A stretch of DNA of 33,752 nucleotides from an uncultured Verrucomicrobiota bacterium (GTDB taxonomy: Bacteria; Verrucomicrobiota; Verrucomicrobiae; Opitutales; Opitutaceae): positions 1 to 33,752 of the forward strand of contig CAMLQS010000013.1 in NCBI GenBank assembly GCA_946482165.1, written 5' to 3'. The stretch's first letter is position 1. Every line of letters begins with the position of its first letter. A program made the position numbers and the translations under genes. The notes under the pieces were generated by a model. That model worked only from the letters and a program-made list of their open reading frames with translations. It did not search any database and was not told the origin of the DNA. Below, piece by piece: positions 10,772-28,500 of this stretch.

Positions 10772-10836
10772 GGCTGGGATGGCTCCGTTTGCGTCGCATG
10801 GCGGCTCCCATCCACCCCGCAGGGACGAAGACGGGC

Positions 10837-10842
10837 TAAAAT
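10837..10842 (+). promoter_or_regulatory. Possible -10 element upstream of mlaE
   Basis: TAAAAT, a 5-of-6 match to the bacterial -10 consensus, lies 61 bases upstream of the mlaE GTG in the 132-base gap between divergent cotH-like and mlaE genes. No good -35 hexamer is found 16-18 bases upstream, so this is a weak call. The rest of the gap holds no other recognisable site. Confidence 0.22.
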
Positions 10843-10903
10843 GGGACGAACCCGGACCAGGCGGGGCCGCGCTTTTCCGTTCGCCTTTGGGCCCGCAACC
10901 TAA

Positions 10904-11704
10904 GTGATTGCCGGGTTTCCTCGCCCCGTGCTCTCCGCCCTTGGTCAATCCACGCTTCGAACCCTTGCCGAATCCGGCAACTTCGCCCGCTTCACGACGC
11001 GCGGCTTCGTCTCCGCGATCGGCTCGCGCCGGCTCGGACGGCGCCTCGTGCGGGCCGTCTACGAGCAGGGCGTGCGCTGCCTGCCGGTCATCCTGATCGT
11101 CGGCCTGTTCACCGGCCTGGTTCTCGGCCTCCAGGGTTACCACACCCTCAACCGCTTCGGCTCCTCCGCCCTTCTCGGCCAGCTCGTCGCCCTCACCCTC
11201 GTCCGCGAACTCGCCCCTGTTCTGGCGGCGCTTATGCTCGTCGGCCAGGCCGGCTCCGCGCTCACCGCCGAGCTCGGCATCCAGCGCAATTCGGAACAGA
11301 TCGACGCCCTCGAAACCATGGGCATCGATCCCTACGGTTTTCTCGTCGCGCCGCGTCTCCTCGCCGCCCTTCTCGTCTACCCGATGATGACCGCCTTCTT
11401 CTCGCTCATCGGGTTGATAGGCGGCTGGCTCTCCGGCTCCGTCCTCCTCGCGCTCGAAGGCGGCGTCTACTGGTCGAGCGTCCACCGGGCCGTCCAGCTC
11501 CACGACGTCGGGCAATCCATGCTAAAGGCCTTCGTCTTTGGCGGCCTCACCGTCGCCCTCTGCTGCCACAACGGCTTCAACGCCCACCGTCGCACCGGCT
11601 CCACCGGCGCGCGCGCCGTCTCCGCGTCCACCACGCGCGCGGTCGTCTTCTCCTGCATCGCCGTGCTCGCCTCGGACTACCTGATCACCTCGCTCCTGGT
11701 CTGA
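10904..11704 (+). CDS. mlaE: MlaE-type lipid ABC transporter permease
   Basis: A 266-residue inner-membrane permease of the MlaE/YrbE family, part of the machinery that moves phospholipids between the membranes. Family features are the amphipathic N-terminus (TTRGFVSAIG), membrane segments from about residue 58 (LPVILIVGLFTGLVLGLQGY), and the highly conserved central stretch LVRELAPVLAALMLVGQAGSA followed by TAELGIQRNSEQIDALETMG. Later helices include LLAALLVYPMMTAFFSLIGL and a C-terminal SCIAVLASDYLITSLLV. The length is normal for the family. The start is GTG just after an in-frame TAA; no Shine-Dalgarno sequence is visible. It is the first gene of mlaE-mlaF-mlaD and 55 bases upstream of mlaF. 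Confidence 0.94.
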   Translation: MIAGFPRPVLSALGQSTLRTLAESGNFARFTTRGFVSAIGSRRLGRRLVRAVYEQGVRCLPVILIVGLFTGLVLGLQGYHTLNRFGSSALLGQLVALTLVRELAPVLAALMLVGQAGSALTAELGIQRNSEQIDALETMGIDPYGFLVAPRLLAALLVYPMMTAFFSLIGLIGGWLSGSVLLALEGGVYWSSVHRAVQLHDVGQSMLKAFVFGGLTVALCCHNGFNAHRRTGSTGARAVSASTTRAVVFSCIAVLASDYLITSLLV

Positions 11705-11759: not shown

Positions 11760-12575
11760 ATGTCCGAACCCGCCTCCGCCCCCCTTCTCGCCACCCGCTC
11801 GATGCAAAAGCGCTTCGGCGAACGCGTCGTGCTCGCCGACGTGACCCTCGAGGTCGACCGCGGCGAAGTCCTCGCCATCGTCGGGAAATCCGGCACAGGC
11901 AAATCCGTCTTGTTGAAGTGCCTCGCCGGCGTCCTTCGGCCTGACTACGGCACGGTCCTTTTCGACGGACAGCCGCTCTCGCGCGACGACGCCCCCGCCC
12001 TCGCCGCCTTTCGCAGCCGCTGCTCCTATCTTTTTCAAGGCAACGCCCTGCTCGACTCGCTGACCGCCTGGGAAAACGTCGCCCTGCCGCTTGAGCAAAC
12101 CACCCTCCTGCCCAAGCCCGAGATCCGCGACCGCGTCGCCGACGCCCTCCGCCGACTCGAACTCGAAAACGACGCCAAGCGCTATCCTTCCCAGCTTTCC
12201 GGAGGCATGCAAAAACGCCTCGCGTTGGCTCGCGCCCTCGTCACCCGTCCCGAGCTCGTGCTCTTCGACGAGCCCACCGCCGGCCTCGATCCCCTTCGCC
12301 GCAACGCCGTCTTCACGCTGATCGCCCACGCCCGGCGCGAGTTCGGCTTCACCGCCGTCATCGTCACGCACGACCTTCCGGAGGCCCTCGTGGCCTGCGA
12401 TCACCTCGCGTTTCTCGACCACGGCCGTATCCACTTTTCAGGCACGCCGGCCGATTTCACCGCCACGGACGACCCCGTAGTCGCCGCCTTCCGCGACAGC
12501 CCTGCGGCCCTCGCCCGCTCCGTCCAGCAACTCCGCGCCGGCGGCCCCCTCGAACCCGCCGACGACCTCGGATAA
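11760..12575 (+). CDS. mlaF: MlaF-type ABC transporter ATP-binding protein
   Basis: A 271-residue ABC ATPase that would power MlaE. Walker A is GKSGTGKS (residues 42-49), the Q-loop is at CSYLFQGNALLDSLTAWENV, the signature is LSGGMQKR, Walker B plus D-loop is LVLFDEPTAGLDP, and the H-switch is VIVTHD. LFQGNALLDSLT and LSGGMQKR are typical of the MlaF/Ttg2A subgroup rather than of generic ABC proteins. The C-terminus (about 245-271) is a short Ala/Leu-rich tail. It lies between mlaE and mlaD on the same strand, with 55- and 68-base gaps. Confidence 0.95.
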   Translation: MSEPASAPLLATRSMQKRFGERVVLADVTLEVDRGEVLAIVGKSGTGKSVLLKCLAGVLRPDYGTVLFDGQPLSRDDAPALAAFRSRCSYLFQGNALLDSLTAWENVALPLEQTTLLPKPEIRDRVADALRRLELENDAKRYPSQLSGGMQKRLALARALVTRPELVLFDEPTAGLDPLRRNAVFTLIAHARREFGFTAVIVTHDLPEALVACDHLAFLDHGRIHFSGTPADFTATDDPVVAAFRDSPAALARSVQQLRAGGPLEPADDLG

Positions 12576-12643
12576 CTCCCGCCCTTCGCTCCGTCCTCTG
12601 TCGCTCCGTCCCTCTGTCGCTCTCCCGTTCTGATTCCGCCGCC

Positions 12644-13120
12644 ATGCAGCCCACGCCCGTCAAATACACCCGCATCGACCTCGCGGTCGGCACCTTCGTC
12701 CTCGCCGGCCTCGTCGCCATCGTCTGGCTCGCGCTGAAGATCGGCGCGGGCGCCCTGGTCGGCGGCGCCACCACCACGGTGCGCGCGCGTTTCTCCAACC
12801 TCGGCGGCCTCGCCCCCGGCGCCAGCGTGCTCATCTCCGGCGTCGCCGTCGGCAAGGTCGAGAAAGTCGAGCTCGACGAGCGCTACGCCGCCATCGCCAC
12901 CCTGCGCGTGCGCAAGGACGTGAAGCTGCCTTCCGACACCATGGCCGCGATCCGCAGCAGCGGCCTGATCGGCGAGAAGCACATCGCCCTCAGCCCCGGC
13001 GCGGACGACACGCTGCTCGAGCCCAACGAGCTGATCACCGACACCGAAAGCGCCGTCGACCTCGAGTCTCTCATCAGCCGCTTCGCCTTCGGCGGCGTGA
13101 AGTCGGAAGAGAAGAAATAG
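12644..13120 (+). CDS. mlaD: MlaD-type MCE-domain protein
   Basis: A 158-residue MCE (mammalian cell entry) protein. It has a short cytoplasmic N-terminus, one membrane anchor at about residues 13-31 (LAVGTFVLAGLVAIVWLAL), then an MCE domain at about 42-125. The domain shows VRARFSNLGGLAPGASVLISGVAVGKV, split here for length into FSNLGGLAPGASVLISG and VAVGKVEKVEL, and the IRSSGLIGEKHIALSPG strand. E. coli MlaD forms a hexameric ring on the permease and shuttles lipids. The length is somewhat short for the family, with little after the MCE domain. No periplasmic carrier (mlaC) or STAS subunit (mlaB) follows; the next gene converges from the other strand only 11 bases away. Confidence 0.93.
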   Translation: MQPTPVKYTRIDLAVGTFVLAGLVAIVWLALKIGAGALVGGATTTVRARFSNLGGLAPGASVLISGVAVGKVEKVELDERYAAIATLRVRKDVKLPSDTMAAIRSSGLIGEKHIALSPGADDTLLEPNELITDTESAVDLESLISRFAFGGVKSEEKK

Positions 13121-13131
13121 GCCGCCCACGC

Positions 13132-14631
13132 CTACTCGGGGAGATCCTCCGCCATCTCCAGGCGCACCTCGGTGCTGAGCGCGCCATCCGCCCCGGGCGC
13201 CTGCGGAATGACGCCCAGCCGCAACCCCCTGAATTCGCCGCTTTCATTCTCCTGTCCCACCTGGATCTCGCCCGCGTTTCCCGCAAGAAGGGTGATTTTC
13301 GGGGAAGCAAGGATGTCCACGCCGGGCGCGCTTATTCTAAGACGTTCCAGCACCCGCGCCACCTCGTCGGCGGTCCAGACTTCTCCATGTTGGAGCGTAT
13401 TGGCGGCGCCGGTGAGCAGGCCATCCAAACCCAGCTCTTTCGCGACCTCGTCCGGCATAGCAAGAAATCTGCCTCCGACCTCCACCTGAGTCCCCTTCCC
13501 ATTCGCCAGTGGCAGGGCCCGGGGGTCAACAAAGGCGAAAAAGCGCTTCCCGTTCGCGGCCCGCGAGCCGCCGGTCACGATGACCTCCCCCGGCTTGGTG
13601 GACACCTTCAGGTTGGAACTCACCAAATGGGTGTTCCCGGGATCCAGGGGCCGGCGCAACTCCGCCAACGCCTCTTTCGCGCGTTTCAGCTCCGCGGTGC
13701 GCTTATCCAACTCCGCGGCGGCCTCGGCCAGGCGAGCGCGAAGATCCGCGTTGTCCCGTTCGAGTCCTGCGGCGCGCTCGTCACGCGTGTTCATGGGTGC
13801 GCGCAGGGTCGCCTCCGCCGGGGCGCGAATATCGCTCTCGACCGGAGGCGGAACGGGGCTCTGCGGACGCAGGCAAAGATAAGTCGCAAAACTCGCGAGC
13901 CCGGCGGCCGCCACCGCGACCGCGCCGATTTTGATTTTGCCCATAAAAAGCAGCGTGAGCCCGGCACCGAGTTTCGCGGCTCCACCCGCCGTCGCCACGA
14001 ACGAGATGACGGACGGCCCAACCGCCGCCGGAGCCGCCATCATGCCGTGCGCGCCAAGCGCCACGCCCAGCGCCTCGGAGGTGGACCGCACGCCGCGCCG
14101 CACCAAGACCGCACGCAGCTTCTCCAGCGCCCGCTCGGTGCGCATCCGCGCCGCGTTCTCGCCCATGCCCAGGGCGGCGCCGACCTCCGCGAAGCTGCGC
14201 TGCTGGAAAAACCGCAACACCACCGCCGCGCGGTCCTTCTCCCGCAAGCCGGCCAAGGCATCGTCGAGACACGGCGCGATACGCTCCCATTCACCGCCGC
14301 CCGACTCATCGATCTCCGCGACCGCGCCGGCATCGCGCACCGCGCAATCCTCGCGAACCACGCGCCGGAGATCAGCCGTGCGCAGCTTGGCGGACGAGAG
14401 CCGCGTGCTCTGGAAGAGCCAGGCCGCGAGCACCCGATGCTCGGCAAGAGCGCCGGCCTTGCGCGCGAGCGCGAGAAAGACGCTTTGCGTGACCTCCTGC
14501 GCCCGGTGGTGGTCGCCGACCTGGCGTCGCGCGGCGGAATACACGAGGTCCGCGTGGCGCCGCACCAGCTCCGAAAACGCCGCCTGGTCGCGGTTCATCG
14601 CATAAGAACGGAGAAGAGTGCGGTCATCCAT
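13132..14631 (-). CDS. ECF sigma factor with membrane anchor and secretin-like C-terminal tail
   Basis: A 499-residue protein. Residues 1-170 are an ECF sigma factor: region 2 (AFSELVRRHADLVYSAARRQVGD, split as AFSELVRRHADLVYSA and ARRQVGDHHRAQEVTQ, then SVFLALARKA) and region 4 helix-turn-helix (LDDALAGLREKDRAAVVLRF, FAEVGAALGMGENAARMRTE). A single hydrophobic segment near 229-250 (KIKIGAVAVAAAGLASFATY) is followed by a coiled coil (about 280-325, DNADLRARLAEAAAELDKRT). A C-terminal domain then carries VDILASPKITLLAGNAGEI, similar to the motif of secretin-type domains. Normal ECF sigma factors are about 200 residues. Such long fusions occur in Verrucomicrobiota and Planctomycetota; the tail may act as an anti-sigma or sensor module. 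No separate anti-sigma gene is adjacent. Confidence 0.88.
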   Translation of the reverse strand: MDDRTLLRSYAMNRDQAAFSELVRRHADLVYSAARRQVGDHHRAQEVTQSVFLALARKAGALAEHRVLAAWLFQSTRLSSAKLRTADLRRVVREDCAVRDAGAVAEIDESGGGEWERIAPCLDDALAGLREKDRAAVVLRFFQQRSFAEVGAALGMGENAARMRTERALEKLRAVLVRRGVRSTSEALGVALGAHGMMAAPAAVGPSVISFVATAGGAAKLGAGLTLLFMGKIKIGAVAVAAAGLASFATYLCLRPQSPVPPPVESDIRAPAEATLRAPMNTRDERAAGLERDNADLRARLAEAAAELDKRTAELKRAKEALAELRRPLDPGNTHLVSSNLKVSTKPGEVIVTGGSRAANGKRFFAFVDPRALPLANGKGTQVEVGGRFLAMPDEVAKELGLDGLLTGAANTLQHGEVWTADEVARVLERLRISAPGVDILASPKITLLAGNAGEIQVGQENESGEFRGLRLGVIPQAPGADGALSTEVRLEMAEDLPE

Positions 14632-14831
14632 GAGGCTTGCGAAGACTTACACCCGCCGCCGACGCCAACCGCACAAAAATCCGTCTTTCACGCGGCCACT
14701 TAACACCTCGGTTCGGCCCGCTGTTACCAGCGAGTTAGGGGCGTTTAACTTTGACCCGTGGTTTACGCACGGCACCGTGCCCGCTCAAGTTGCGTCACAT
14801 TCCGACACAAACCTGCGCAAGCGCTCTTCAA

Positions 14832-15293
14832 ATGCGGAGTTCCTCGGTGGGCGAATTCGGCTCCCGTCCGAACAACCCGGAGACCAGTCCGAGGCGCCAC
14901 GGAGCGACGCCGATCCTGGCCCTGTTGATTCGTCACCGGCTCCTCGGCCTCGTCGCGCTGATCGCGGCGGCTTCTCATTTCATTCTGAAAACGACCGGGG
15001 GTGCCGGGCTCCCCTGCCCGGCGCGAGAACTCCTCGGCGGGACTTGTCCGGGCTGCGGCCTGGGAAGCGCGATTCTCCGGCTCGCCGGCGGCGAGTGGCG
15101 CGAAGCCCTGGCGCATCACGCATTCGCCCCCGTGTTCGCGGCGATCCTGCTCTTGCTGGCGGGCGTCCAAACGCTGCCGGCCGCGATCCGCCTGCGCGTG
15201 GCGGATCGTGTCGCCGCATGGGAGGGGCGAACCGCCGCGGGGCCGCTTCTGCTGATCGCGTTGACCGCCTATTGGCTGCTTGGCCTCCCCTGA
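14832..15293 (+). CDS. DUF2752 family membrane protein
   Basis: A 153-residue membrane protein of the DUF2752 family, function unknown. It has the family's cysteine motif GGTCPGCGLGSAILRLAGGEW (C72 and C75, with C62 in GLPCPAR before it), then the conserved helical stretch EALAHHAFAP. About three hydrophobic segments are present: residues 37-53, 99-115 and near the C-terminus (LLLIALTAYWLLGL). I preferred ATG at 14832 because the 27 residues encoded upstream look like non-coding promoter DNA. It lies 60 bases before the DUF4190 protein gene and may be the first gene of the ubiquitin-like operon, or only a neighbour. Divergent from the sigma factor, with a 200-base gap in which I could not place a promoter. 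Confidence 0.8.
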   Translation: MRSSSVGEFGSRPNNPETSPRRHGATPILALLIRHRLLGLVALIAAASHFILKTTGGAGLPCPARELLGGTCPGCGLGSAILRLAGGEWREALAHHAFAPVFAAILLLLAGVQTLPAAIRLRVADRVAAWEGRTAAGPLLLIALTAYWLLGLP

Positions 15294-15353: not shown

Positions 15354-15752
15354 ATGCAATGCAAAAACCATTCCTCCACCGCGGCGGTTGATCGCTGCAC
15401 CGGCTGCGCCGAACCTTTCTGCGGCGATTGCCTGGTCGAGATCCAAGGCCAAAAATACTGCGGCGCCTGCAAGGTGATGGCCCTGAAAGGCCGGCCGGTG
15501 GTGGTGGAGCAAGGCAGCGTGCCGTGCAAGGAAGCCGGCGAAGCGCTCACGATGGCTATCATCAGCCTCTTTTGCTTCGGATTCATCCTGGGCCCCCTCG
15601 CGATAGCCAAGGCATCGAAAGCAAAAGCGCTGATCGAGGCGGACCCGGAGCTCACCGGCTCCGGCAAGGCGACCGCGGCGCAGATCATCGGGGGACTCGC
15701 GCTCGCCTTCTGGATCCTCAGTCTCGCGGCAAAAATGTCCTCCACCCGCTGA
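15354..15752 (+). CDS. B-box-like zinc finger and DUF4190-like membrane protein
   Basis: A 132-residue protein. The N-terminal 40 residues form a zinc-finger module with ligand-type residues C3, H6, C15, C18, C23, C26, C36 and C39, a B-box-like spacing (CKNHSSTAAVDRCTGC, FCGDCL, KYCGAC). Two hydrophobic segments follow at about 64-84 and 107-126, separated by a helical loop containing GPLAIAKASKAKAL, typical of DUF4190-type two-helix proteins. The finger would face the cytoplasm. In eukaryotes B-box fingers accompany RING E3s; here the link is only by analogy and neighbourhood, since the gene sits 10 bases before another zinc-finger membrane protein and heads the ubiquitin-like gene run. Confidence 0.75.
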   Translation: MQCKNHSSTAAVDRCTGCAEPFCGDCLVEIQGQKYCGACKVMALKGRPVVVEQGSVPCKEAGEALTMAIISLFCFGFILGPLAIAKASKAKALIEADPELTGSGKATAAQIIGGLALAFWILSLAAKMSSTR

Positions 15753-15762
15753 GCCGCCCGCA

Positions 15763-16494
15763 ATGGACCTGATCTGCCCGACCTGCCGAGGTTCCTTGAC
15801 GCGAGAGGGGCCCGTCGCGCGATGCCTCTCCCACGGGGGAACTTTTCAAGTGCTGTATTTCCGCGAGCCCGCACCCGCGCCCGTGGCGGCGACGGCGAGC
15901 CCGGTCGAAGCCGACGCCGCGCCACCGCCTCCCTCCGATCCCGTCGATTCCTCCGTCCCGCCACCGATCAAGAGCCCCGTGCGGCTTACCCTCGCGCCGC
16001 GCGCCCCTCTGCCATCGCCCCCCGCGGAGGTGTCCCCCCGGTTCGCGAACATGCGCTGCGTGCAACACCCCTCGGTGACCGCCGCCGCGCAATGCTGCTC
16101 CTGCGGAGCCTATGTGTGCGCGACCTGCGATTTCGCGCTGCCCAACAACCTTCACGTCTGCCCCGCCTGCGCCGTCGCTTCGCAGAGCGGGCTGAGCCCG
16201 AGGCGCAAACGCGGCCTGTGGTGGTCGCTCGGGCTCGCGATCTGGTCCAGTGTTGTCATGGCGGCGCTTTTCGCCGCCGCAGTGGCAGGCTCCATGGAAT
16301 CCGAAGCCGCGCAGGCCGGCTTCGGGGTTCTGCTCACCATGCTGGCGTTCGTGCCCTCGGTGATCGGCTTCGGCATCGGCTTGAGCACGGTCGACCGCCG
16401 TCTGGCGAATCCGCCTCTCCTCTGGGTGGCAACAATCTGGAACGCGCTGATCGCGGCCGGCTATTTGCTGCTGGCCATGATCGGCGCCGACTAA
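15763..16494 (+). CDS. Dual zinc-finger membrane protein of the ubiquitin-like locus
   Basis: A 243-residue protein without a named function. It opens with a C4/C3H-type zinc ribbon (C5, C8, C21, H24: LICPTCRGSL, RCLSHGGTF). A Pro/Ala-rich linker covers about 35-90. A second, B-box-like finger spans roughly 95-140 (MRCVQHPSVTAAAQCCSCGA, YVCATCDF, HVCPAC). Three hydrophobic segments end the protein (about 150-176, 184-205 and 217-240). The second finger closely resembles that of the preceding gene, suggesting the pair arose by duplication or acts together. It is 18 bases before the next gene. Confidence 0.75.
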   Translation: MDLICPTCRGSLTREGPVARCLSHGGTFQVLYFREPAPAPVAATASPVEADAAPPPPSDPVDSSVPPPIKSPVRLTLAPRAPLPSPPAEVSPRFANMRCVQHPSVTAAAQCCSCGAYVCATCDFALPNNLHVCPACAVASQSGLSPRRKRGLWWSLGLAIWSSVVMAALFAAAVAGSMESEAAQAGFGVLLTMLAFVPSVIGFGIGLSTVDRRLANPPLLWVATIWNALIAAGYLLLAMIGAD

Positions 16495-16512: not shown

Positions 16513-16782
16513 ATGGCCAATCCCATCATCCAAGTCGGCGGAACCTTCTCGGACCATTTTATGGAGGTGACGTTTTTTCACCTTCGCCTCTCGGCGCCTC
16601 ACGGGCCCTACGAAGGCGGCCGGACGATCAGCTACCGAGACGTGAACTGCGTGCTCGTCTCGCCGTCCCACGAGCTGACGCTGCAGATCGGCAAGCATCT
16701 CTTCAGCATCCCGATCGGCCCCGCAAACCCCGAACACCAGAAAGCGCTCTCCGCCTTGCTCGAGGCGCTGGCGCGCAACTGA
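16513..16782 (+). CDS. Small beta-rich protein, possibly PH-like
   Basis: An 89-residue soluble protein I do not recognise. Alternating hydrophobic strands (MEVTFFHLRLSA, GRTISYRDVNCVLVS, HELTLQIGKHLFSIPIG) end in a single amphipathic helix (EHQKALSALLEALARN). That pattern, many strands then one C-terminal helix, with ISYRDV where bacterial PH domains have a similar turn, suggests a minimal PH-like fold. This is inference only. It sits between the zinc-finger membrane protein (18 bases) and the ubiquitin-like protein gene (36 bases), so a role as adaptor or substrate in that pathway is likely. Confidence 0.7.
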   Translation: MANPIIQVGGTFSDHFMEVTFFHLRLSAPHGPYEGGRTISYRDVNCVLVSPSHELTLQIGKHLFSIPIGPANPEHQKALSALLEALARN

Positions 16783-16818
16783 GCCGCAACCCGCCGCTTC
16801 GCCGGCCCTTTTTCACCT

Positions 16819-17109
16819 ATGGGTATGATCAAAATGCGAGTGTCCGACATCTCCGGCAGCCGGATGACCGAGGTCGAGGCGCCGGATGACGTGGCGATAA
16901 ATCGGCTGCTGGCGGTGCTCGTCGAGCGCATGAACCTGCCGCTCAACAGTCCCGACGGACAGTTGATGAGTTACAAACTGCACCACCGGCGCACCGGTTC
17001 CCAGCTCCTCGACAACCAGACCCTGCAACTCGCCGGCGTGCTCGACGGGGACGAACTGCGTCTGCAGCCGGAGATCACGGCCGGCGCCGCCCCGACTCTC
17101 CGCCACTGA
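16819..17109 (+). CDS. Ubiquitin-like protein (YukD/EsaB-like)
   Basis: A 96-residue protein with the beta-grasp pattern of YukD/EsaB-type ubiquitin relatives. It shows a first beta hairpin (MIKMRVSDISGSRMTEVEAP), a helix with the DDVAINRLLAVLVERMNLP stretch, then LMSYKLHHRRTGSQLLDN and the ubiquitin-like final strand TLQLAGVLDGDELRLQPE. The order strand-strand-helix-strand-strand and the 'L-D-G-D-E-L-R-L' end are typical of the family. The C-terminus is EITAGAAPTLRH. It does not finish in Gly, so conjugation would need processing, for example after the AG pair. Next to E1, JAMM protease, RING and E2 genes, it is the likely modifier. Some YukD proteins are type VII secretion parts instead, but no ESX genes are here. 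Confidence 0.85.
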   Translation: MGMIKMRVSDISGSRMTEVEAPDDVAINRLLAVLVERMNLPLNSPDGQLMSYKLHHRRTGSQLLDNQTLQLAGVLDGDELRLQPEITAGAAPTLRH

Positions 17110-17129
17110 CCGAGCGCGCCGCCTCCGCC

Positions 17130-18326
17130 ATGTCGATCATCATCCCCGCAAAGGACGGTCGCTTCGCCCGCCTGGAGGCGATCGAGTGGTGGGATCAGGC
17201 ACGCCTCGCACGAGCCCGCGTTCTGGTCGTCGGCGCGGGCGCCCTCGGCAACGAGGTGATCAAGAACCTCGCGCTGCTCGGGGTCGGGCATATCGCCGTC
17301 GCCGACATGGATCGCGTGGAGTTGAGCAACCTGAGCCGCTCCGTCCTCTTTCGCGAAACCGACGAAGGCCGGCCAAAGGCGCAATGCGCGGCCGAGGCCG
17401 CCCGCCAGATCTTCGGCGGGATAAACATCGTGCCGCTCGACGGCAACGTCCTCGCCGATCTCGGGCTCGGCTGGTTTCGCTGGGCGGAAGTGGTGATCGG
17501 GGCGCTCGATAACCGCGAGGCCCGCGTCTTTCTCAACAGCGCCTGCGCCCGCGTCGGCCGTCCTTGGTTCGACGGAGGCATCGAGGTCCTGCACGGCGTG
17601 GTGCGCGGTTTCTCGCCGCCCGCGACCGCCTGCTACGAATGCACGATGAGCCGGATCGACTGGGATCTGCTCAACAAGCGTCGATCATGCTCCTTGCTGG
17701 CCCGCCGCGCGATAGCCCATCAAGGCACTCCGACCACGCCCACCACCGCCTCGATCATCGCGGCGATGCAGGTGCAGGAAGTCGTCAAATGGCTGCACGG
17801 CCGGCCCGCCCTGCTCGGGCGCGGCTTCGTCTTCGACGGGGCGGAGCACGGCTCCTACCCCGTGAACTACCCGATCTCTCCCGATTGCCCGTGGCACGAG
17901 GCGCCCGCGCCGATCAAGAGCGTGCCTTGGTTCCGCTCCGACACGCCCTTCCGTCGGATTTGCGAAGAAGCCGCGCGCCGGCTCGGCGGGCTAGACGCGA
18001 TCGATTTCGCACGCGAAATCGTCGAGCGGCTCGACTGCCCCGCCTGCGGCCGCCCGGAGCCAATCTTTCAAGCGATCGAAAAGGTCGCGCCCGAACACGT
18101 GCCCTGCCCGAGCTGCCGCGCCGAACGCATTCCGGCCTTCATTCATTCCCTTTCGCCGGACAGCCCCCTGCTCGACCGCACGCCCCGCGAACTGGGGCTC
18201 CCGCCATGGGAAATCGTCTGGGCCCGGCACGGCGCCGAAATCATCGGCTTCGAGATGAGCGGCGACAATCCCTTCACCCCGGACAACCCGGCGCCCGCCT
18301 CCTCCCTCGCCATTCCCCACCCCTGA
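17130..18326 (+). CDS. E1-like ubiquitin-activating enzyme (ThiF fold)
   Basis: A 398-residue ThiF/MoeB/E1-superfamily adenylating enzyme. The Rossmann nucleotide loop is VVGAGALGNE (G35-G40), followed by VADMDRVELSNLSR (D59, D61, N67, R70), R81-P-K83 and GALDNREAR (D127). Next comes CYECTM (C168, C171), a zinc-ligand pair placed as in the NEDD8 E1 UBA3, and RRSCSLL (C187), where UBA3 keeps its catalytic cysteine. TTASIIAAMQVQEVVKW matches the conserved E1 helix. The C-terminal part has CPAC (C303, C306) and CPSC (C326, C329), enough to complete the zinc site and possibly form a further ribbon. It would adenylate the upstream ubiquitin-like protein and form a thioester with it. MoeB/ThiF metabolism is unlikely given the E2, RING and JAMM neighbours. 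Confidence 0.92.
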   Translation: MSIIIPAKDGRFARLEAIEWWDQARLARARVLVVGAGALGNEVIKNLALLGVGHIAVADMDRVELSNLSRSVLFRETDEGRPKAQCAAEAARQIFGGINIVPLDGNVLADLGLGWFRWAEVVIGALDNREARVFLNSACARVGRPWFDGGIEVLHGVVRGFSPPATACYECTMSRIDWDLLNKRRSCSLLARRAIAHQGTPTTPTTASIIAAMQVQEVVKWLHGRPALLGRGFVFDGAEHGSYPVNYPISPDCPWHEAPAPIKSVPWFRSDTPFRRICEEAARRLGGLDAIDFAREIVERLDCPACGRPEPIFQAIEKVAPEHVPCPSCRAERIPAFIHSLSPDSPLLDRTPRELGLPPWEIVWARHGAEIIGFEMSGDNPFTPDNPAPASSLAIPHP

Positions 18327-18328
18327 CC

Positions 18329-19450
18329 ATGCCGAATCCCGACAAGCGCGCGCCGGCCTCCGGCTCCCTCACCGTTCGCCCGCTTTCCTCCGAGGCCAAG
18401 CCCGTGCGCCGCGACTTCCCCGGGCCGCGGCAAGCGGACGCGCCGCTGCGGGTCGCCATCGACCGCGCCGCCTACGCCGATCTCATCGCCTACGCCAAAA
18501 GCTCTCTCGACGCCGAGGTCTGCGGCGTCCTCGTCGGGCAAGTCTGCGAGGACGCCGCCGGCGTCTTCGTGCACGTCGAGGCGCTTATCCGCGGCAACTC
18601 CGCCGCTCAGGCCGCGACTCACGTCACCTTTACCCAGGCCACTTGGGACGCGATCCATCAGACGCTCGAACGCGAACACCCGAAGCGTCGCATCGTCGGC
18701 TGGTATCACACCCACCCCGGCTTCGGCGTGGAGTTCTCCGAGATGGACCTGTTTATCCAGCGCAACTTTTTCCCCGGCCCGACACAGATCGCGCTCGTCA
18801 CCGATCCCATGAGCGGAGCGGTCGCCATCCTGACCAACATCCAGGGCGAGATCTCGTATCTGCCCCGCTTCTGGGTCGACGGCCGGGAGCAGACCGGCGT
18901 GCGCCCGACGGGCGCGAGTTCCTCCGCCAACCCCGAGCCCGCCGCCTCCGCTCCCGCCGCCTCGCCCGACGCCATCAAAAATCTCGAGTCGCGCATCGGG
19001 CAGCTGATCCAGGCCAACGACGAACTGCGCGCGCTCTTTCATCGCGTCATCCTTACCGTGGGCCTCGCGGCCTGCCTGGGGATCATCGCGACGGCGGGTT
19101 ATGTAATTTACCGCCAATACGCCGCTCCGCTGGAACCTCCCCGCCTGAACAGCTTCGCCCCCGTTCCCGTGCGCATCGGCGACAAAACCGTGCTGCTCGG
19201 CGTCGGAGTCGTGGAGTGGCAGATTCCGAAGGAGCTCGATGCGCTGATGCTCGATCTCGCGGAACAAGACCGCGCCCGCGCCGCGGCGGACAAAGACAAG
19301 GCGGAGCCCGGAAAAGCCGGCGTCAATCAACCTCCCTCCGCGCCACCCGCCTCGCCGGACGCCTCGCCAAACGCGAACCCGGGCGCGGTCGCGCCCCAGC
19401 CCGCGGTCGACGCCCAACCCGCGCCCGCATCCACCTTGCCCAAGCCATGA
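18329..19450 (+). CDS. Membrane-anchored JAMM/MPN+ deubiquitinase-like protease
   Basis: A 373-residue protein. Residues 40-185 form an MPN+/JAMM domain with all metal-site residues: E63 (DAEVCGVLVG), H127 and H129, S137 and D140 in GWYHTHPGFGVEFSEMD. The GWYHTHPGFG stretch strongly resembles eukaryotic Rpn11/CSN5. A short coiled coil (about 214-238) leads to one membrane helix (about 239-261, ILTVGLAACLGIIATAGYVI). The rest is a Pro/Ala-rich region on the far side of the membrane, so the protease would face the cytoplasm. JAMM enzymes cut isopeptide bonds or trim ubiquitin-like precursors. The open frame runs back to 17564, but that part shadows the E1. I chose ATG 18329, 2 bases after the E1 stop; the stop overlaps the next start by 4 bases. 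Confidence 0.92.
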   Translation: MPNPDKRAPASGSLTVRPLSSEAKPVRRDFPGPRQADAPLRVAIDRAAYADLIAYAKSSLDAEVCGVLVGQVCEDAAGVFVHVEALIRGNSAAQAATHVTFTQATWDAIHQTLEREHPKRRIVGWYHTHPGFGVEFSEMDLFIQRNFFPGPTQIALVTDPMSGAVAILTNIQGEISYLPRFWVDGREQTGVRPTGASSSANPEPAASAPAASPDAIKNLESRIGQLIQANDELRALFHRVILTVGLAACLGIIATAGYVIYRQYAAPLEPPRLNSFAPVPVRIGDKTVLLGVGVVEWQIPKELDALMLDLAEQDRARAAADKDKAEPGKAGVNQPPSAPPASPDASPNANPGAVAPQPAVDAQPAPASTLPKP

Positions 19451-20835
19451 ACGACGATTTCTCCGGCGTGATTCGCATCACCAAAGAAGACGCGACGAGC
19501 GCGCACGTCGACGGCTTGCTCAAGCGCCAGATGAGCATGCGGGGCGATCCCGGCGTCACGCGGGACCGTCGCCGGCGCTGGTATGCCCAGAACTGGCTGC
19601 TTCTCGCCATCGCGGGCATGATCGGAGCCATCCTCGCCTGGGCCCTCCTCGAGCCTTTCTTCGACGACCAGCTCTACGTGCAAGGACCCGTGGCCGAGCT
19701 CAAACTGCGAGATCGCCTCCCGGATCGCGTCGTGGACGAGGACACCGGCGAAGCGTTGGACGCGAGCGTCCTCGGCTCGCTCTCGATCAACGGGGAGCGG
19801 ATTTTGCTGTTCAAAGGCACCCGCGAGATCACTCCCGGCGGAAATCGCCGGCTGAATGTCCGGGACCTGAAGGAAGGCGAGACGCTTGGACTCCACGTCG
19901 AATACGTGCGCAGAGAGGAGCAAGACCTCGTCTTCGCCGTCTTCGTGGAACGCTCGCCGAAACCCCTCGAAGCGTCGCGGGCCGCGATGACGTTGAGCCA
20001 GTTGCAGGCGAGATCGCGCGCCGCCTCGATCTTCCTGTTTCCGCTGGTCGCCGGACTGATCGGATTGTGCATCGGCGCGGTCGACGGCCTGATCTGCCGC
20101 CTGCCCCGCCGAGCCCTGGTGTGCGGCGGCGTCGGCCTCGTTGTCGGGGTCACCGGCGGCTTCGTTTGCAGCATCCTCGCGAACCTCGCCTACGCGCCGC
20201 TGCACGATCTCGCGCTGCGCCAAATGGACAAAGGCGGCACGGCCCTCGGCGCCTTCGGGTTCCTCGTTCAAACCGTCGGCCGTTCGCTGGCATGGGCTTT
20301 GGCCGGCATGGCCATGGGACTCGGGCAGGGCATCGCCCTTCGCTCGCAACGCCTGCTGCTCTACGGCTTGTTCGGCGGCGTGCTCGGCGGCCTCTTCGGC
20401 GGCCTCCTGTTCGACCCGATCGACACCATCCTGCTGGGGCCGGATAAACCCAGCGCGCATCTGGCGCGACTGATCGGCTTTGCCGTGATCGGCCTCGGCG
20501 TCGGAGGAATGATCGGCGTGGTGGAACTGCTGGCCCGAGACGCCTGGCTGCGGATGACCCAAGGGCCGCTGACCGGCAAAGAATTCCTGCTGTTCAAGGA
20601 CACGATGAACATCGGCGCGTCGCCACGCTCCGACCTCTACCTCTTCAACGATCCCTTGGTCGCGAAGCAGCATGCCGTCATTCGGGCCATGGGCGACGAA
20701 TGCGAACTCGAGGCGCTGGAGACCACCTCGCCCGTGCTGCTCAACAACCGCCCGGTGCGCCGCGCGCGTTTGCGTCACGGAGACAACATCACCATCGGGC
20801 GGACCTCCTTTGTGTTCCAACGCCGGAAAGGCTGA
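19447..20835 (+). CDS. Multipass membrane protein with C-terminal FHA domain
   Basis: A 462-residue protein. An N-terminal cytoplasmic stretch with RRRRW leads to a first membrane helix (about 50-69). An extracytoplasmic domain follows (about 73-190, beta-rich: ELKLRDRLPDRVVDEDTGEA, GERILLFKGTREITPGG). Five more hydrophobic, Gly-rich segments span about 194-364. The C-terminus (about 376-460) is a forkhead-associated domain with IGASPRSDLYLF, KQHAVIRAMG and LLNNRPVRRARLRHGDNITI. Six membrane helices with a cytoplasmic N-terminus place the FHA domain in the cytoplasm, where it would bind phosphothreonine. No Ser/Thr kinase is in the window. Start chosen by the 4-base overlap with the JAMM gene; the frame upstream to 18643 shadows that gene. 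Confidence 0.88.
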   Translation: MNDDFSGVIRITKEDATSAHVDGLLKRQMSMRGDPGVTRDRRRRWYAQNWLLLAIAGMIGAILAWALLEPFFDDQLYVQGPVAELKLRDRLPDRVVDEDTGEALDASVLGSLSINGERILLFKGTREITPGGNRRLNVRDLKEGETLGLHVEYVRREEQDLVFAVFVERSPKPLEASRAAMTLSQLQARSRAASIFLFPLVAGLIGLCIGAVDGLICRLPRRALVCGGVGLVVGVTGGFVCSILANLAYAPLHDLALRQMDKGGTALGAFGFLVQTVGRSLAWALAGMAMGLGQGIALRSQRLLLYGLFGGVLGGLFGGLLFDPIDTILLGPDKPSAHLARLIGFAVIGLGVGGMIGVVELLARDAWLRMTQGPLTGKEFLLFKDTMNIGASPRSDLYLFNDPLVAKQHAVIRAMGDECELEALETTSPVLLNNRPVRRARLRHGDNITIGRTSFVFQRRKG

Positions 20836-20839
20836 CCGC

Positions 20840-21436
20840 ATGAGCGCAGACCCCATGCCCGCCGGCCCAAGCACCGGCTCCTGCCCGTTCTGCCTCGGGG
20901 CGCTGGGCGCCGATGAAGCGACCCACGGCTGCCCCGCATGCCGCGCCGTGCATCACAAGGAGTGTTGGGACGAAAACGGCGGATGCTCGGTCTATGGCTG
21001 CGCCTGCGTGCCCGCGGTCGAGGCCCGAAGCGCGCTGGAGGTGCCCGTCTCCTATTGGGGCCAGGAGCACAAGCCCTGCCCCGTCTGCCGCCAGGAGATC
21101 CTCGCGGCCGCCGTGCGTTGCCGGCACTGCGGTTCGACCTTCGCAACCGCTCGGCCGGAAAACAGCGCCGAGTTCGAACAACGCGCCGCCCTGGCCGACC
21201 GGTTGCCGGGAGTGCGCCGAATGGTCGTCGTTATCTTTGTCCTTGGCATACTCCCGGGCCTCTCGCCGATCGCCGCCGTCTGGGGCCTTGCCTGGGGCAA
21301 GACGAAGCAGGAGGACATCCTCGCCCTGCCGCCCATCTACGGCGCGCTGCACCGGATCGGCTTGGTCGCATCCTGCGCGCTCACCCTCGTCCTGATCCTG
21401 GTCATGGTGCTTTACGCGCTCGTGCGCGGAAGCTGA
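20840..21436 (+). CDS. RING-like zinc-finger membrane protein, candidate E3
   Basis: A 198-residue protein. Its N-terminus has a RING-type cross-brace ligand pattern: C15-x2-C18, C31-x2-C34, H38/H39, C42, C49 and C54 (CPFC, HGCPACRAVHHKEC, GGCSVYGC). This resembles the prokaryotic RING fingers predicted from comparative genomics, which lie beside E1/E2/JAB genes. A separate C4 zinc ribbon follows (C80-x2-C83, C94-x2-C97). Two hydrophobic helices (about 128-151 and 173-195) anchor it in the membrane with the fingers probably cytoplasmic. As the only RING-like gene beside an E2, it is the candidate ubiquitin-like ligase. The start ATG is 4 bases after the FHA-protein stop and follows a GGAAAGG stretch, one of few possible ribosome sites in this operon. 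Confidence 0.85.
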   Translation: MSADPMPAGPSTGSCPFCLGALGADEATHGCPACRAVHHKECWDENGGCSVYGCACVPAVEARSALEVPVSYWGQEHKPCPVCRQEILAAAVRCRHCGSTFATARPENSAEFEQRAALADRLPGVRRMVVVIFVLGILPGLSPIAAVWGLAWGKTKQEDILALPPIYGALHRIGLVASCALTLVLILVMVLYALVRGS

Positions 21437-21460
21437 TTGGCCCATCCGATTTTGCCCTCC

Positions 21461-21925
21461 ATGCAAGCCCGCCTGCGCCGCCTTCACGCCGACCACGCCC
21501 AAGTCTCGGCCCGTTTCGCGAATCATCCGCGCATCCGTCTGCTGCAGGCGGACGGCACGCCTCCCGACAAATACACCGTCGAATTCCTGGTGCCGTCCTT
21601 GGTGCCGTCGGGCGAGGACGGCTGCTCTTTCGCCGACGCCCATCGGGCCGAGTTCTTCCTGCCTTTGGATTATCCGCGGCGTCCGCCCTTCTGCCGAATG
21701 ACCACCCCCGTTTTCCATCCCAACATCGACCCGCAGAAAATCTGCATCGGCGATCATTGGAGCGCGGGACAATCGCTGGCGGAGATGATTACGCGGGTCG
21801 CCGAAATGCTCTGTTACCAGAGCTACAACGTGAAAAGCCCGCTCAACGCGGCGGCCGCGGCCTGGGCGGAGCTTAACATCGCGCGGCTCCCCCTGCTAAA
21901 AGAGGACCTTTCCGCCGCCTGGTGA
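21461..21925 (+). CDS. E2 ubiquitin-conjugating-like enzyme (UBC fold)
   Basis: A 154-residue UBC-fold protein, normal size for an E2 core. It carries the conserved LPLDYPRRPPFCRM (the Y-P-x-x-P-P strand), the HPN motif (H86-P87-N88 in VFHPNID), the catalytic-position cysteine C95 in KICIGDHW, and WSAGQSLAEMI as in canonical E2s (W-S-x-x-x-x-x). The end, VKSPLNAAAAAWAE, matches the E2 'P-L-N-x-x-A-A' helix. It would take the ubiquitin-like protein from the E1 at C95 and work with the RING protein. It is the last gene of the locus. I chose ATG 21461 over a TTG at 21437, since the ATG opens the typical N-terminal helix. C78 and C118 are other cysteines but lie outside the motif. Confidence 0.93.
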   Translation: MQARLRRLHADHAQVSARFANHPRIRLLQADGTPPDKYTVEFLVPSLVPSGEDGCSFADAHRAEFFLPLDYPRRPPFCRMTTPVFHPNIDPQKICIGDHWSAGQSLAEMITRVAEMLCYQSYNVKSPLNAAAAAWAELNIARLPLLKEDLSAAW

Positions 21926-25559: not shown

Positions 25560-28500
25560 CTACTCCACCACGATCAGAAGTTCCGGTGCATTCGCCGCCG
25601 ACACGTCCGCAACAGGAAACTCCATCCCGCGCGAAGCCGCATGACCGGCGACCATGAATCGCAATCGTCCCGGCGGCAGATTCGTAAACCGAAACCGCCC
25701 CTCCGCATCCGTCTTCTCCTCGGCATGCGCCGCAGGGAGCCGCTCGCCCGCTTCGTTTTCCCAATCCGCGAAAAACGCCAAAGGCCGAACCCCCGAGACC
25801 GCGCCGCCATCCGCCCGCGCCACTCGCCCCGTCAACCGCAGCCCGGGCTTCACCGTCAGCACCCACGGTTCCGGCTCGTTTCCGGTGAACTTCGTCCGCA
25901 CCGGTTGCCAATCCCGATCAAACGTCACGTGCAGATCGCAGGCCACCCCGTCCAAACGCCGCAGCCCTTCGATGCGAAACATCCCTTCGTCGTTCGTGCG
26001 GAAACTCGCCAAGTCCCAATTCTCGGAACCGGGATCTCGCCGGCCTACGCTCAGCCTGGTCCCCGCGACCGGCCCGTCCCCCGGCCCCGCCACACGCACG
26101 ACGACCTCCTTCGCCGGATAGAACCGCAGCGCCACGTCCGCGACAGGCTTGGCCGCGGTCAACGTGATGGGCTCGGACTGCACCCGCCGTCCTCCATGAG
26201 TCGCGATAACCCGACGGCTACCGCCGAGGGACACCGATCCGAAGACGCCCTTGAAACTGCGCGCAAATTCATCGCGGTTCTCCAAACTCCGCACCGTCGA
26301 CAAGGCGTCCGCCTCCGTCAGCACGACGCGGGCCCCGATCAAGGGAGTTCCATACTCGTCTCGCACCTCCACCCGGATCGCCCCCGCGGGCGAGAGCTTG
26401 ATCGCCCGTCGCTGCACTCCGGCGCCCGCCTCGACCAAGAAGTCCTGCGCCTCCGCGATGTAACCCGGAATCTCCGTCTGCGACCGGACGCGCACACGCG
26501 TGCCCGGCGCCAAACCCGGGAGCTCGATCCGTCCGCCCTTCACCCTGTGGAACCGGTGGGAGACGACATTTCCGTCCTGATGGTCGCCGGTTCCCGGCGG
26601 CTCGATCGCAACCAGAAGGTTCCCATCGGGCACGGCGCCGCCGTCCGTCGCGGCGAGGTCGAGAACGACCCCGCGCCCGTGCAAGGCCCTCGCTTTGCCG
26701 GCCTCTCGCCAGTCGTCGGCCAACCACAACCATTCCTCGTCCATCACCAACTCCACATCGTCGCGATCTTTCTCCAGATTCACCTTCGCCCGGCTTCTCA
26801 CCACGGGGATGCCCAGCACGAGTTCCCCTTCGGGCAGGTTGGAGAACGCGAACGCATATCCGTCGCGATCCCACTCCGGCAGCAACGACTCCAACGTGAC
26901 GAGCACCGTCTCACCACTCTCGTGCCTGACCGCCCGCTGCACCCGCACGCACCGCTTGAACATCGGCTCCTCCGTCGCCCGCTCCAGGCGAACACGCCCG
27001 CTCAAACGCAAGCCGCCCTTCTTCAACGCCACGTCCAACACATCTCCCGAACGCGCCAGCAGCGCCTCGCTCACATAGCCGTCCCGATTGAACACATGCC
27101 CGTGAACCTCGTCGTCCTCCCACCCCGGCATCACGAAGCGGCCGTCCACATCGGTTCGCCAAAGCGAGGGCGGAAGGGGAAAATAGATAGCCGAATCCCA
27201 CGGCTCGCGTAGCGAGATCGCCACGCCCGCGATCGGCTTTCCGTCCTCCGCGTCCACCACCCGCCCCGTGATCGTCCGATTCTTTGGCAAGACCCACTCC
27301 ACCAGCTCCGCGCCGGGATGTCCTCGCCACGCGCGCCGAGCCGTCCGGCGCCCCACCGCCGTCGCTTCGAGTTCGTAAACAAACTCCGGGGCCACGTGCG
27401 GCAAAATCACGAGCCCGTCCGCGCTCGTGCGCAAAATCGCCTGCCGGTGTTCCAACCCGTGGTATTCGGTCCTGATTCGCACCGACACCGGCACATCGGC
27501 AAGCGGCGCGCCCGCCTCGTCTCGAACACGCAGCGTCAACGGTCGCCCCTTCCGTAAGGTCAGCGCCGGCATGACCAGCTCGCCTTCGCCTTCCACCGGC
27601 TCCCGCTCATACGCCACCGCGGGCGCCCAGCCCTCGGGCACCGCCAGAACCGACGCCAGGCCCAAGGGAACCTTGAGGCTCGCCCTGCCGTTCACCCACT
27701 CGAAACCCATGCTTGAAACGCCTCTTCCATTCGCGGCCAGATAAACACCCGGCACCCGCTCCGGCACCGAAGTTCCATCCTCCGTGCGCAGCTCGCTCAC
27801 GAGAGTGACGGCCCGCTCCGGGTAGACCGGCTTCGACCAAGATCCGCCACGCGGACGCCCCGCCTCCATCGCCTCCTTCACCACCTTTGTTCGCTCCTGC
27901 GGCGACATCACTTGCGCCACGATTACCGGCGAAGCCGCGAACAACGCCGCATACGCCATCAGCGCGCCGATCACCAGCCACCCTCCCGGAGCCCAGTTCA
28001 CGCGACTCGTCGCCGGCCGCCCCAGCAAACGCCCGATCCGCGCACGCAGATCGCCCGGCTCATGCCCGTCCGCCGCCAACACGCGGCTCCCCGCGGTCGG
28101 AGTCGAGGGCAAGGCCCCCGCCAGCGTCGCCAACGCTCGCGCATAGCCGAGCGAATCGCGCGTCCATTCCACCGCCAGATCGTCGCAGGCCCGCTCCCGC
28201 TCGCGCCGGATGTGCGAATTGAACGCATGCACCGCCGGATGAAAAAAGAACACCGCCTCCGCCACGCTCTGCAGCACGTTCAGCCAAAAATCCCGCCGCA
28301 CCAGATGCGCCAGCTCGTGCGCCAGCACCGCCTCCACCTGCGCCGCCGGCAAGCCTGCCACAAAACCGGCGGGCAACAAAATTACCGGCGCCCAGCCACC
28401 GAGCACCTGCGGCACCCGCGCCAGACTCGTCTCGCCGATCCGCGGCAACCCGAGCCCCGGGGCGCAGCGCGCGCACAAGGCCGCGAAACGATCCCTCCAC

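What the first reader, a model, noticed from the sequence alone, without database searches (positions are those of the whole stretch)
16513..21925. A complete-looking bacterial ubiquitin-like conjugation pathway in one operon
Seven genes in one orientation, with gaps of 2-36 bases or 4-base overlaps, encode a YukD-like ubiquitin fold, an E1 (GAGALG, CYEC, RRSC), a JAMM protease (E63, H127, H129, D140), an FHA membrane protein, a RING-like finger protein and an E2 (HPN, C95), plus a small PH-like protein. Every step of conjugation and removal has a candidate. Known bacterial systems such as Bil and type II CBASS are more compact and mostly soluble. The membrane and FHA elements make this arrangement unusual, and possibly undescribed as a system.
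Basis: partly seen in the sequence, partly recalled or inferred. Interest (0 to 1): 0.93.

Follow-up and report, generated by a model that had tools for sequence, protein, structure and literature searches.

The report
Membrane-anchored bacterial ubiquitin-like conjugation operon
A bacterial gene cluster encodes a small ubiquitin-like protein whose tail glycine is kept in all 119 close relatives listed, together with all the enzymes predicted to attach it to other proteins and remove it again, several of them predicted to sit in the cell membrane; it is a richer, likely membrane-based version of bacterial ubiquitin-like systems that had been predicted but, as far as I could read, not tested.

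Summary
Seven co-directional genes (16513-21925) encode a PH fold, a YukD-type ubiquitin-like protein (Ubl), E1, JAMM peptidase, FHA membrane protein, RING protein and E2. Two B-box membrane genes (15354-16494) belong upstream. Gene order is conserved in 9 of 14 homologous loci; 3 are cut by contig ends but agree, 2 lack part of it. New evidence: the Ubl ends in EITAG in all 120 best database copies (of 1556), followed by nothing (10) or a variable tail (110, 99 different), the mark of a modifier matured by a peptidase, as in archaeal CsUb/CsRpn11. The E1 model has a C-terminal domain where several eukaryotic E1s carry their E2-docking domain. E2 copies that lost the catalytic cysteine (7, in 6 genomes) come only from genomes in which I found neither this Ubl nor this E1. 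The type is rare, seen in four phyla. Related operons in Planctomycetes were predicted in 2011 (seen only as a citation), so this is a membrane-bound, FHA-linked variant of a known kind. Conjugation, targets and biological role are untested.

The parts
14751..15293 (+). DUF2752 membrane protein (mechanical ORF; true start probably further in); probable associate
   Evidence: Pfam DUF2752 2e-10. A DUF2752 gene lies just downstream of the E2 in L001, L005, L007, L010, L013 and near it in class B loci L038, L040, L041, L043, L045, L046; in the window it lies upstream.
15354..15752 (+). B-box-like zinc finger + DUF4190-like two-TM protein, first conserved gene of the cluster
   Evidence: ANCHR-like B-box 5.1e-4 and DUF4190 1.6e-6, both below the curated cut-offs; 8 Cys/His ligands invariant in 10 of 10; present in 9 of 9 complete loci
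15763..16494 (+). B-box-like zinc finger membrane protein
   Evidence: no Pfam family above cut-off; C99 H102 C111 C114 C119 C122 C133 C136 invariant in 10 of 10; three hydrophobic segments; 9 of 9 complete loci
16513..16782 (+). small PH-fold protein, fast evolving, optional
   Evidence: AlphaFold pLDDT 89.8, Foldseek PH domains; counterparts found in 5 of 9 complete loci
16819..17109 (+). YukD-type ubiquitin-like modifier; G89 is the predicted mature C-terminus, residues 90-96 the predicted pro-tail
   Evidence: Pfam YukD 1.1e-10 over residues 7-82; EITAG in 120 of 120 listed copies (window's own included), tail absent in 10 and variable in 110
17130..18326 (+). E1: ThiF-type adenylation domain, Zn site, C187, C-terminal domain (about 259-379) with four-Cys zinc ribbon, predicted UFD-like
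   Evidence: ThiF 1.5e-51; C168, C171, C187 invariant in 35 of 35 rows of classes A-C; model pLDDT 90.7; 15 of 50 listed structural alignments (UBA1, UBA6, UBA7, UBA3, SAE2 entries) reach residue 377-379
18329..19450 (+). JAMM/JAB metallopeptidase with one C-terminal TM segment
   Evidence: JAB 2.3e-11; E63 35/35, H127, H129, S137, D140 36/36; best PDB sequence match an Rpn11-like protein 3e-11 (6fjv); hydrophobic 235-261
19447..20835 (+). polytopic membrane protein with a C-terminal FHA domain; start overlaps the JAB stop by 4 bases
   Evidence: FHA 1.8e-10 and Yop-YscD_cpl 7.6e-13; hydrophobic segments 49-72, 190-250, 303-364
20840..21436 (+). RING finger (C4HC3) + zinc ribbon + two TM segments, E3 candidate
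   Evidence: Prok-RING_1 2.6e-8 above cut-off; eight ligands C15 C18 C31 C34 H39 C42 C49 C54 invariant in 13 of 13 class A rows (C15 in 12 of 12)
21461..21925 (+). E2 conjugating enzyme, HPN and catalytic Cys (C95 from this ATG; an alternative TTG start lies at 21437)
   Evidence: UQ_con 1.4e-11; HPN and C[IV]GDHW in 120 of 120 listed relatives; PDB match to E2s, best 7.6e-9

Best explanation
This operon encodes a ubiquitin-like protein and matching E1, E2, RING and JAMM proteins that are predicted to attach the ubiquitin-like protein to target proteins at the inner membrane and to take it off again. Predicted steps: (1) The membrane-anchored JAMM peptidase trims the variable tail after the invariant Gly89 of the Ubl (inferred; where the tail is absent this step is not needed). 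(2) The E1 adenylates Gly89 and passes the Ubl to its C187 (inferred from the ThiF-type fold and invariant residues). (3) A C-terminal domain of the E1, placed where eukaryotic E1s carry their ubiquitin-fold domain, presents the E2, whose Cys (C95) takes the Ubl (inferred from a model). (4) The membrane RING protein brings charged E2 to membrane or membrane-near targets (inferred; no E3 activity shown). (5) The FHA protein links the process to Thr phosphorylation, and the B-box, PH and DUF2752 proteins help assemble it at the membrane (least certain). (6) The JAMM enzyme also removes the Ubl. What is shown: the genes, their conserved order, the invariant active-site residues and the invariant glycine with its variable tail. 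The biological role is most likely regulated marking of membrane proteins under stress, with phage defence the main alternative.
Against: No conjugate has been shown for any member I could read about. B. subtilis YukD is reported not to be conjugated (PMC1779556, passage). The Ubl ends in a single Gly (AG), not Gly-Gly. The 120 Ubl copies are close kin. Two loci break the order: L004 (E2 and a C-terminal piece of the RING gene, no FHA in 1.9 kb upstream) and L007 (E2 and DUF2752 only, E2 without its N-terminus, scaffold with N runs); a YukD search found none in the genomes of L004, L005, L007 and L010 (8 of 12 genomes matched). Two genomes keep the E2 Cys but show neither Ubl nor dedicated E1 (G052, G172). 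One class C Ubl (L097) ends IIAA, and one of two tandem Ubls on a Crinalium plasmid lacks a terminal Gly. A JAMM gene is kept next to tail-less Ubls, so tail removal cannot be its only task. In one search, 35 of 50 rows, among them UBA3, UBA6 and SAE2 entries, do not align the C-terminal domain to its end. Membrane side and topology are inferred from hydropathy alone. The FHA role is inferred from its domain only.
Confidence: 0.72

Rival explanations
1. The Ubl works without covalent attachment, as a structural part of a membrane complex (as YukD/EccD in type VII secretion), and the E1/E2/JAMM proteins modify something else or are regulatory.
For: The Ubl belongs to the YukD family, and B. subtilis YukD is reported not to be conjugated (PMC1779556 passage). 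FHA and membrane proteins are neighbours.
Against: Gly followed by a variable tail in 120 of 120 listed copies; adjacent active-site-complete E1, E2 and JAMM; no type VII ATPase or WXG100 family among the Pfam families shown for 47 flanking ORFs (25 of 60 families listed).
Confidence: 0.1
2. The system is a phage-defence operon comparable to Bil or Bub: conjugation of the Ubl blocks phage development.
For: Patchy distribution across phyla; a compact relative sits on a mobilizable plasmid; bacterial Ubl operons are said to act mainly against phages (PMC12687455 passage).
Against: PADLOC names only ThiF, JAB and E2 type models for the operon (E1-E2 5.8e-15, BilD 4.5e-7, JAB 2.4e-7) and two weak zinc-finger matches. 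The flanks show no clear defence island, but this is inconclusive (mad3 matched 2 of 47 ORFs, best 1e-30, not followed up). Most parts are membrane proteins. No match to the E2 in 50,697 phage records, which says little either way.
Confidence: 0.25
3. It is a sulfur-carrier pathway (ThiS/MoaD type) in which the Ubl Gly becomes a thiocarboxylate.
Against: E2 and a RING protein in every complete locus, the E2 with HPN and Cys; E1 with an extra C-terminal domain that aligns with E2-docking E1s in 15 of 50 rows; no sulfurtransferase or biosynthetic family among the operon's ten proteins.
Confidence: 0.04

Closest known systems
Prokaryotic RING/E2/E1/JAB/Ubl operons of Burroughs, Iyer and Aravind 2011 (Mol BioSyst; not held, seen only as a citation; its text recalled)
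   Same: E1, E2, RING, JAB and Ubl in one operon, including Planctomycetes (PMC4197634 passage); as recalled, YukD-like Ubls were proposed there to be conjugated
   Different: I could not check whether that paper describes the FHA, B-box, PH-fold and DUF2752 members or the Gly-plus-tail pattern
Caldiarchaeum subterraneum ubiquitin operon (CsUb, E1, E2, srfp RING, CsRpn11)
   Same: complete E1/E2/RING/JAMM set; modifier made as a precursor with a tail cut by the JAMM enzyme (PMC5654768, PMC6043591 passages); the window JAMM's best PDB match is an Rpn11-like protein (6fjv; CsRpn11 by recall)
   Different: archaeal, Gly-Gly modifier; no membrane, FHA or B-box members reported in the passages read
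Bil (BilABCD)
   Same: Ubl, E2, JAB and E1 in one operon (PMC11354881 passage)
   Different: BilA has two Ubl domains; BilD has an inactive and an active adenylation domain; BilB carries CEHH; four genes, no RING named there. Only a weak BilD match here (4.5e-7)
Bub operons (Gong 2025; Ye 2026)
   Same: bacterial Ubl conjugation operons, putative immune or stress systems (PMC13373217 and PMC12687455 passages)
   Different: the defining papers are not held; 219 of 544 Bub operons carry CapW or CapH+CapP regulators; no such regulator was named in the operon here
Type VII secretion YukD/EsaB/EccD
   Same: Pfam YukD domain
   Different: no E1/E2/RING beside it in the 2006 survey's YukD row, and YukD reported not conjugated (PMC1779556 passages)

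Membership tests
Bacterial Ubl conjugation operons with RING (Burroughs 2011 kind) | E1, E2, RING, JAB and Ubl encoded together | tested here: met
   all five in 9 of 9 complete loci and in the window
Bacterial Ubl conjugation operons with RING (Burroughs 2011 kind) | active-site residues of E1, E2 and JAMM intact | tested here: met
   E1 C187, 35 of 35; JAMM residues; E2 HPN and Cys in 120 of 120 listed
Bacterial Ubl conjugation operons with RING (Burroughs 2011 kind) | covalent conjugation of the Ubl | not testable with these tools
   needs biochemistry
Caldiarchaeum-type ubiquitin operon | modifier precursor with residues after the reactive Gly | tested here: met
   110 of 120 listed copies carry a tail after EITAG, 10 end there
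Caldiarchaeum-type ubiquitin operon | C-terminal Gly-Gly | tested here: not met
   the conserved end is ..ITAG, a single Gly
Bil (BilABCD) | two tandem Ubl domains in BilA | tested here: not met
   96-aa protein with one YukD domain
Bil (BilABCD) | E1 with an inactive and an active adenylation domain | tested here: not met
   398 aa, one ThiF domain 17-238
Bub | family-defining sequences and architecture | not tested
   defining papers not held
Type II CBASS | cyclic-nucleotide synthase beside an E1-E2 fusion and JAB | tested here: not met
   no nucleotidyltransferase match in the operon, E1 and E2 are separate genes
Type VII secretion YukD | WXG100 protein and FtsK/EssC-type ATPase beside YukD | tested here: inconclusive
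   none in the operon; flanking ORFs: 25 of 60 families shown, none of these

The most novel reading that the evidence does not exclude
A YukD-family protein, thought of as a secretion-system part, is a true covalent protein modifier: it is made as a precursor, trimmed after a single invariant glycine by a membrane-bound JAMM protease, and attached to membrane proteins by a bacterial E1-E2-RING cascade that is gated by Thr phosphorylation through an FHA membrane protein. It would be a self-contained bacterial counterpart of membrane-associated ubiquitination, passed between phyla as one block.
Probability: 0.4. Interest if true: 0.85.

Novelty: new variant of a known kind. Interest (0 to 1): 0.62.

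Why it matters
If true, bacteria own a full membrane-bound ubiquitin-like cycle (precursor processing, E1, E2, RING, removal) with a phospho-reading partner, built on a modifier family whose best-known member is reported as not conjugated. It gives a compact set of genes for asking how E2 docking, RING ligases and pro-tail processing arose before eukaryotes, and each step can be tested in vitro. It also hands over a clean marker, a fixed Gly followed by a variable tail, for finding conjugated members among YukD proteins.

Tried and rejected
Claim that the E1 is closer to eukaryotic E1s than to ThiF/MoeB: dropped. With one sequence UBA7 and SAE2 rank above ThiF, but UBA7 sums two adenylation domains; with the profile the scores are similar (ThiF 146 bits, SAE2 142, best single UBA7 domain 119.5) and VIA-align puts MoeB/ThiF first over the catalytic half.

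Horizontal transfer: weaker than it first looked. The E1 tree makes the window type one clade (100/100), but inside it rows sort partly by phylum: three Verrucomicrobiota, the window and one Planctomycetota row (L003) group at 90/93, five Planctomycetota at 88/72. The clearest cross-phylum pair is in class B (L037 and L079, 100/99).

Defence-island reading of the flanks: 47 of 99 candidate flanking ORFs were scanned. DUF2752, ABC_tran, AAA_21, SMC_N and AXE1 recurred, in 2 ORFs each (Pfam). PADLOC gave 53 families, 25 shown, most in one ORF; mad3 (best 1e-30), AriA and mad8 in 2 ORFs each, not followed up. Inconclusive.

PH protein by sequence: a search of 5.8 billion proteins found only itself; its counterparts were found in the loci. 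PDB by sequence for the Ubl: nothing significant. Promoter/terminator scan: one promoter-like site, on the - strand; 11 terminator-like sites against 5.6 expected; no conclusion. Phages: no match to the E2. Plasmids at E 1e-20: one match to the E1, a compact class C operon. Viral, metagenome and E. coli collections were not scanned.

A UFD in the E1 rests on aligned ranges in 15 of 50 rows; the C-terminal domain was not searched alone.

Rows dropped: L056 is apparently the same contig as L012 (same length, same hits) and was left out of the E2 count (53 of 54 rows), but it is still in the JAB and Ubl column counts. L007 was not in the E2 alignment. Four weak Ubl hits (L081, L083, L089, L098) were not in the 33-row Ubl count; their ends are QHGC, EGGLR, IEAGA and VDAGAGGEAR. 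L081 counts as 'Ubl present' on a weak hit (2e-5). Ubl copies were not checked for being cut by contig ends.

Literature: searches (8 of 10). No paper was found in that library that describes this operon with its FHA and B-box members; the library lacks most subscription papers, so this is no proof of absence. Papers read as passages only: PMC1779556, PMC11354881, PMC4197634, PMC5654768, PMC6043591, PMC13373217, PMC12687455, PMC7203096 (the last gave nothing of use). Not held: Burroughs 2011 (tried by DOI, and by PMC id), Ye 2026, Gong 2025, Chambers 2024. Recalled, from no call: the UFD name and its place in eukaryotic E1s, thiocarboxylate chemistry, that 6fjv is CsRpn11, and the content of Burroughs 2011.
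Full report
On the + strand, 16513-21925, seven genes lie 2 to 36 bases apart or overlap by 4. Pfam recognises YukD, ThiF, JAB, FHA, Prok-RING_1 and UQ_con above the curated cut-offs. The small first protein has no Pfam or NCBIfam match, but its AlphaFold model (pLDDT 89.8, seven strands and a terminal helix) matches PH and PH-like domains in PDB (best E 6.2e-4, the only row under 0.001).

The unit is larger than stated. A pattern scan of the genome collection with the E2 gave 14 loci, by record title in Planctomycetota, Verrucomicrobiota, an Acidobacteria MAG, a Fibrobacter MAG and one unplaced bacterium. In 9 of the 14 the neighbourhood is complete, and in 9 of these 9 the order is B-box 1, B-box 2, (PH), Ubl, E1, JAB, FHA, RING, E2; the PH gene was seen in 5 of 9. 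Three loci (L005, L010, L013) are cut by contig ends and agree. Two do not show it: L004 has the E2 and only the C-terminal part of the RING gene, with no FHA in 1.9 kb upstream; L007 has the E2 (without its N-terminus) and DUF2752 in a scaffold with N runs. A Pfam YukD search of 12 of the host genomes found it in 8; the four without are those of L004, L005, L007 and L010. DUF2752 follows the E2 in L001, L005, L007, L010 and L013, overlapping it in three of them by the starts I chose; in the window a DUF2752 gene lies upstream.

The strongest new evidence concerns the modifier. The YukD domain ends at residue 82, yet residues 83-89 (QPEITAG) are invariant in 10 of 10 class A rows. Of 1556 database hits the best 120 were listed (the window's own protein and 119 others, 81-100% identical). 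All 120 carry EITAG; 10 stop there and 110 go on for 2 to 40 residues with 99 different tails. In more distant relatives the residues before it differ (LLLTSTFVAG, LIVYPEIVAG) but the Gly stays in 32 of 33 rows of classes A to C. A fixed reactive Gly followed by a free tail is what precursors of ubiquitin-type modifiers look like. In Caldiarchaeum the pro-ubiquitin has nine residues after Gly-Gly, cut by the JAMM enzyme CsRpn11 (PMC5654768 and PMC6043591, passages), and the best PDB sequence match of the window JAMM protein is an Rpn11-like protein, 6fjv (3e-11; CsRpn11 by recall). Here the end is a single Gly, which differs from CsUb.

The enzymes look active. E1 C168, C171 and C187 are invariant in 35 of 35 rows of classes A to C; JAMM E63 in 35 of 35 and H127, H129, S137, D140 in 36 of 36, the eight RING ligands (C4HC3) in 13 of 13 class A rows (C15 in 12 of 12); HPN plus C[IV]GDHW in 120 of 120 listed E2 relatives (the best of 1104). 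A review describes prokaryotic RING fingers as C4HC3 with a longer spacing in the last pair (PMC11354881 passage), as here. The E1 model (pLDDT 90.7) aligns with MoeB and ThiF over residues 7-258. In 15 of 50 listed rows (UBA1, UBA6, UBA7, one UBA3 and one SAE2 entry) the alignment runs on to 377-379 with 295-308 residues and rmsd 3.8-7.5; the other 35 rows, among them further UBA3, UBA6 and SAE2 entries, stop earlier. I read the extra domain as an E2-docking ubiquitin-fold domain with a zinc ribbon; this is an inference from aligned ranges.

A natural test of coupling: in 53 distinct E2 sequences (54 rows, one duplicate dropped), 46 keep the catalytic Cys and 7 have Tyr, His or Asp there. Of the 46, 42 have the Ubl or the dedicated E1 in the locus or genome. 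Two (G052, G172) have neither anywhere found; two (L004, L005) lie on short contigs, and their genomes gave no YukD hit either. The 7 lie in 6 genomes, and 0 of 6 has the Ubl or an E1 of this family (best E1 scores 83-139 bits against 352-558 in the five genomes of that call that have it). Fisher p 2e-6, not corrected for kinship. So the Cys seems to be kept for this Ubl and E1.

Relatives fall in three arrangements: class A as in the window; class B, with Ubl, E1, JAB, FHA, one to three RING genes and E2, often DUF2752, in Planctomycetota and Verrucomicrobiota; class C, compact E1, Ubl, E2, JAB without an FHA gene in line. A class C operon sits on a mobilizable plasmid of Crinalium. In evenly drawn genomes any relative of the E2 occurs in 31 of 294 Planctomycetota, 4 of 288 Verrucomicrobiota, 12 of 199 in the phylum of L005, 4 of 100 in that of L010 and 7 of 99 in that of L004 (the last set overlaps the L005 set). 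The window type itself is nearly confined to the centre genomes, which were chosen because they have it; the one other is G280, apparently the genome of L012. In the E1 tree class A is one clade (100/100) that holds Planctomycetota and Verrucomicrobiota, but its rows sort partly by phylum; the clearest cross-phylum pair is in class B (L037 with L079, 100/99). Patchiness suggests transfer as a block; the tree gives it only modest support, and I set the novel case at 0.40 instead of 0.45 for that reason.

Mechanism. I commit to membrane-coupled reversible conjugation of the Ubl: tail removal by the JAMM protein, activation by E1, transfer to E2, RING-assisted delivery near the membrane, removal by the JAMM protein. 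The JAB, FHA, RING, B-box and DUF2752 proteins carry hydrophobic segments, while Ubl, E1, E2 and PH do not. The FHA domain suggests a link to Thr phosphorylation. All reaction steps, topology, partner contacts and targets are inferred. Phage defence is the main rival for the role.

Known or new. Related bacterial operons were reported in 2011 according to PMC4197634 (passages); the 2011 paper itself was not held. Bil differs by a double Ubl and a two-domain E1 (PMC11354881 passage); Bub could not be compared. I therefore file it as a new variant of a known kind.

Noticed in passing
L047, L050, L054, L085, L086, L087, L088: E2-fold proteins with HPN but Tyr, His or Asp instead of the catalytic Cys, in longer open frames (zinc-ribbon-like or repeat-like ends), in genomes without the Ubl: likely pseudo-E2s with a new role.
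   Followed up: partly
L105 6168-6745: Two tandem Ubl-like genes in a compact E1-Ubl-Ubl-E2-JAB operon on a mobilizable Crinalium plasmid; one ends EGGY, the other lacks a terminal Gly.
   Followed up: partly
L009 and L037 (genome G001): One Planctomycetes genome carries both a class A operon and a class B operon about 0.6 Mb apart.
   Followed up: no
L040, L041, L043, L044, L046: Class B loci have two or three RING-like genes in a row, and the E2 often lies in a longer open frame (1067 aa in L042).
   Followed up: no
L043 (G172) and L039 (G052): E2 with intact Cys but no Ubl or dedicated E1 found in the genome.
   Followed up: partly
window 5639-11515 (-): Very long open frame (1958 aa from a TTG) upstream of the operon on the other strand; not identified.
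   Followed up: no
window 11760-13120: ABC ATPase and MlaD protein genes upstream of the operon.
   Followed up: no
window 13132-14631 (-): Sigma-70-like factor (regions 2 and 4) with a long C-terminal part, divergent from the operon.
   Followed up: no
window 25560-29009 (-): Large BlaR1-type M56 peptidase with carboxypeptidase-regulatory and Ig-like domains.
   Followed up: no
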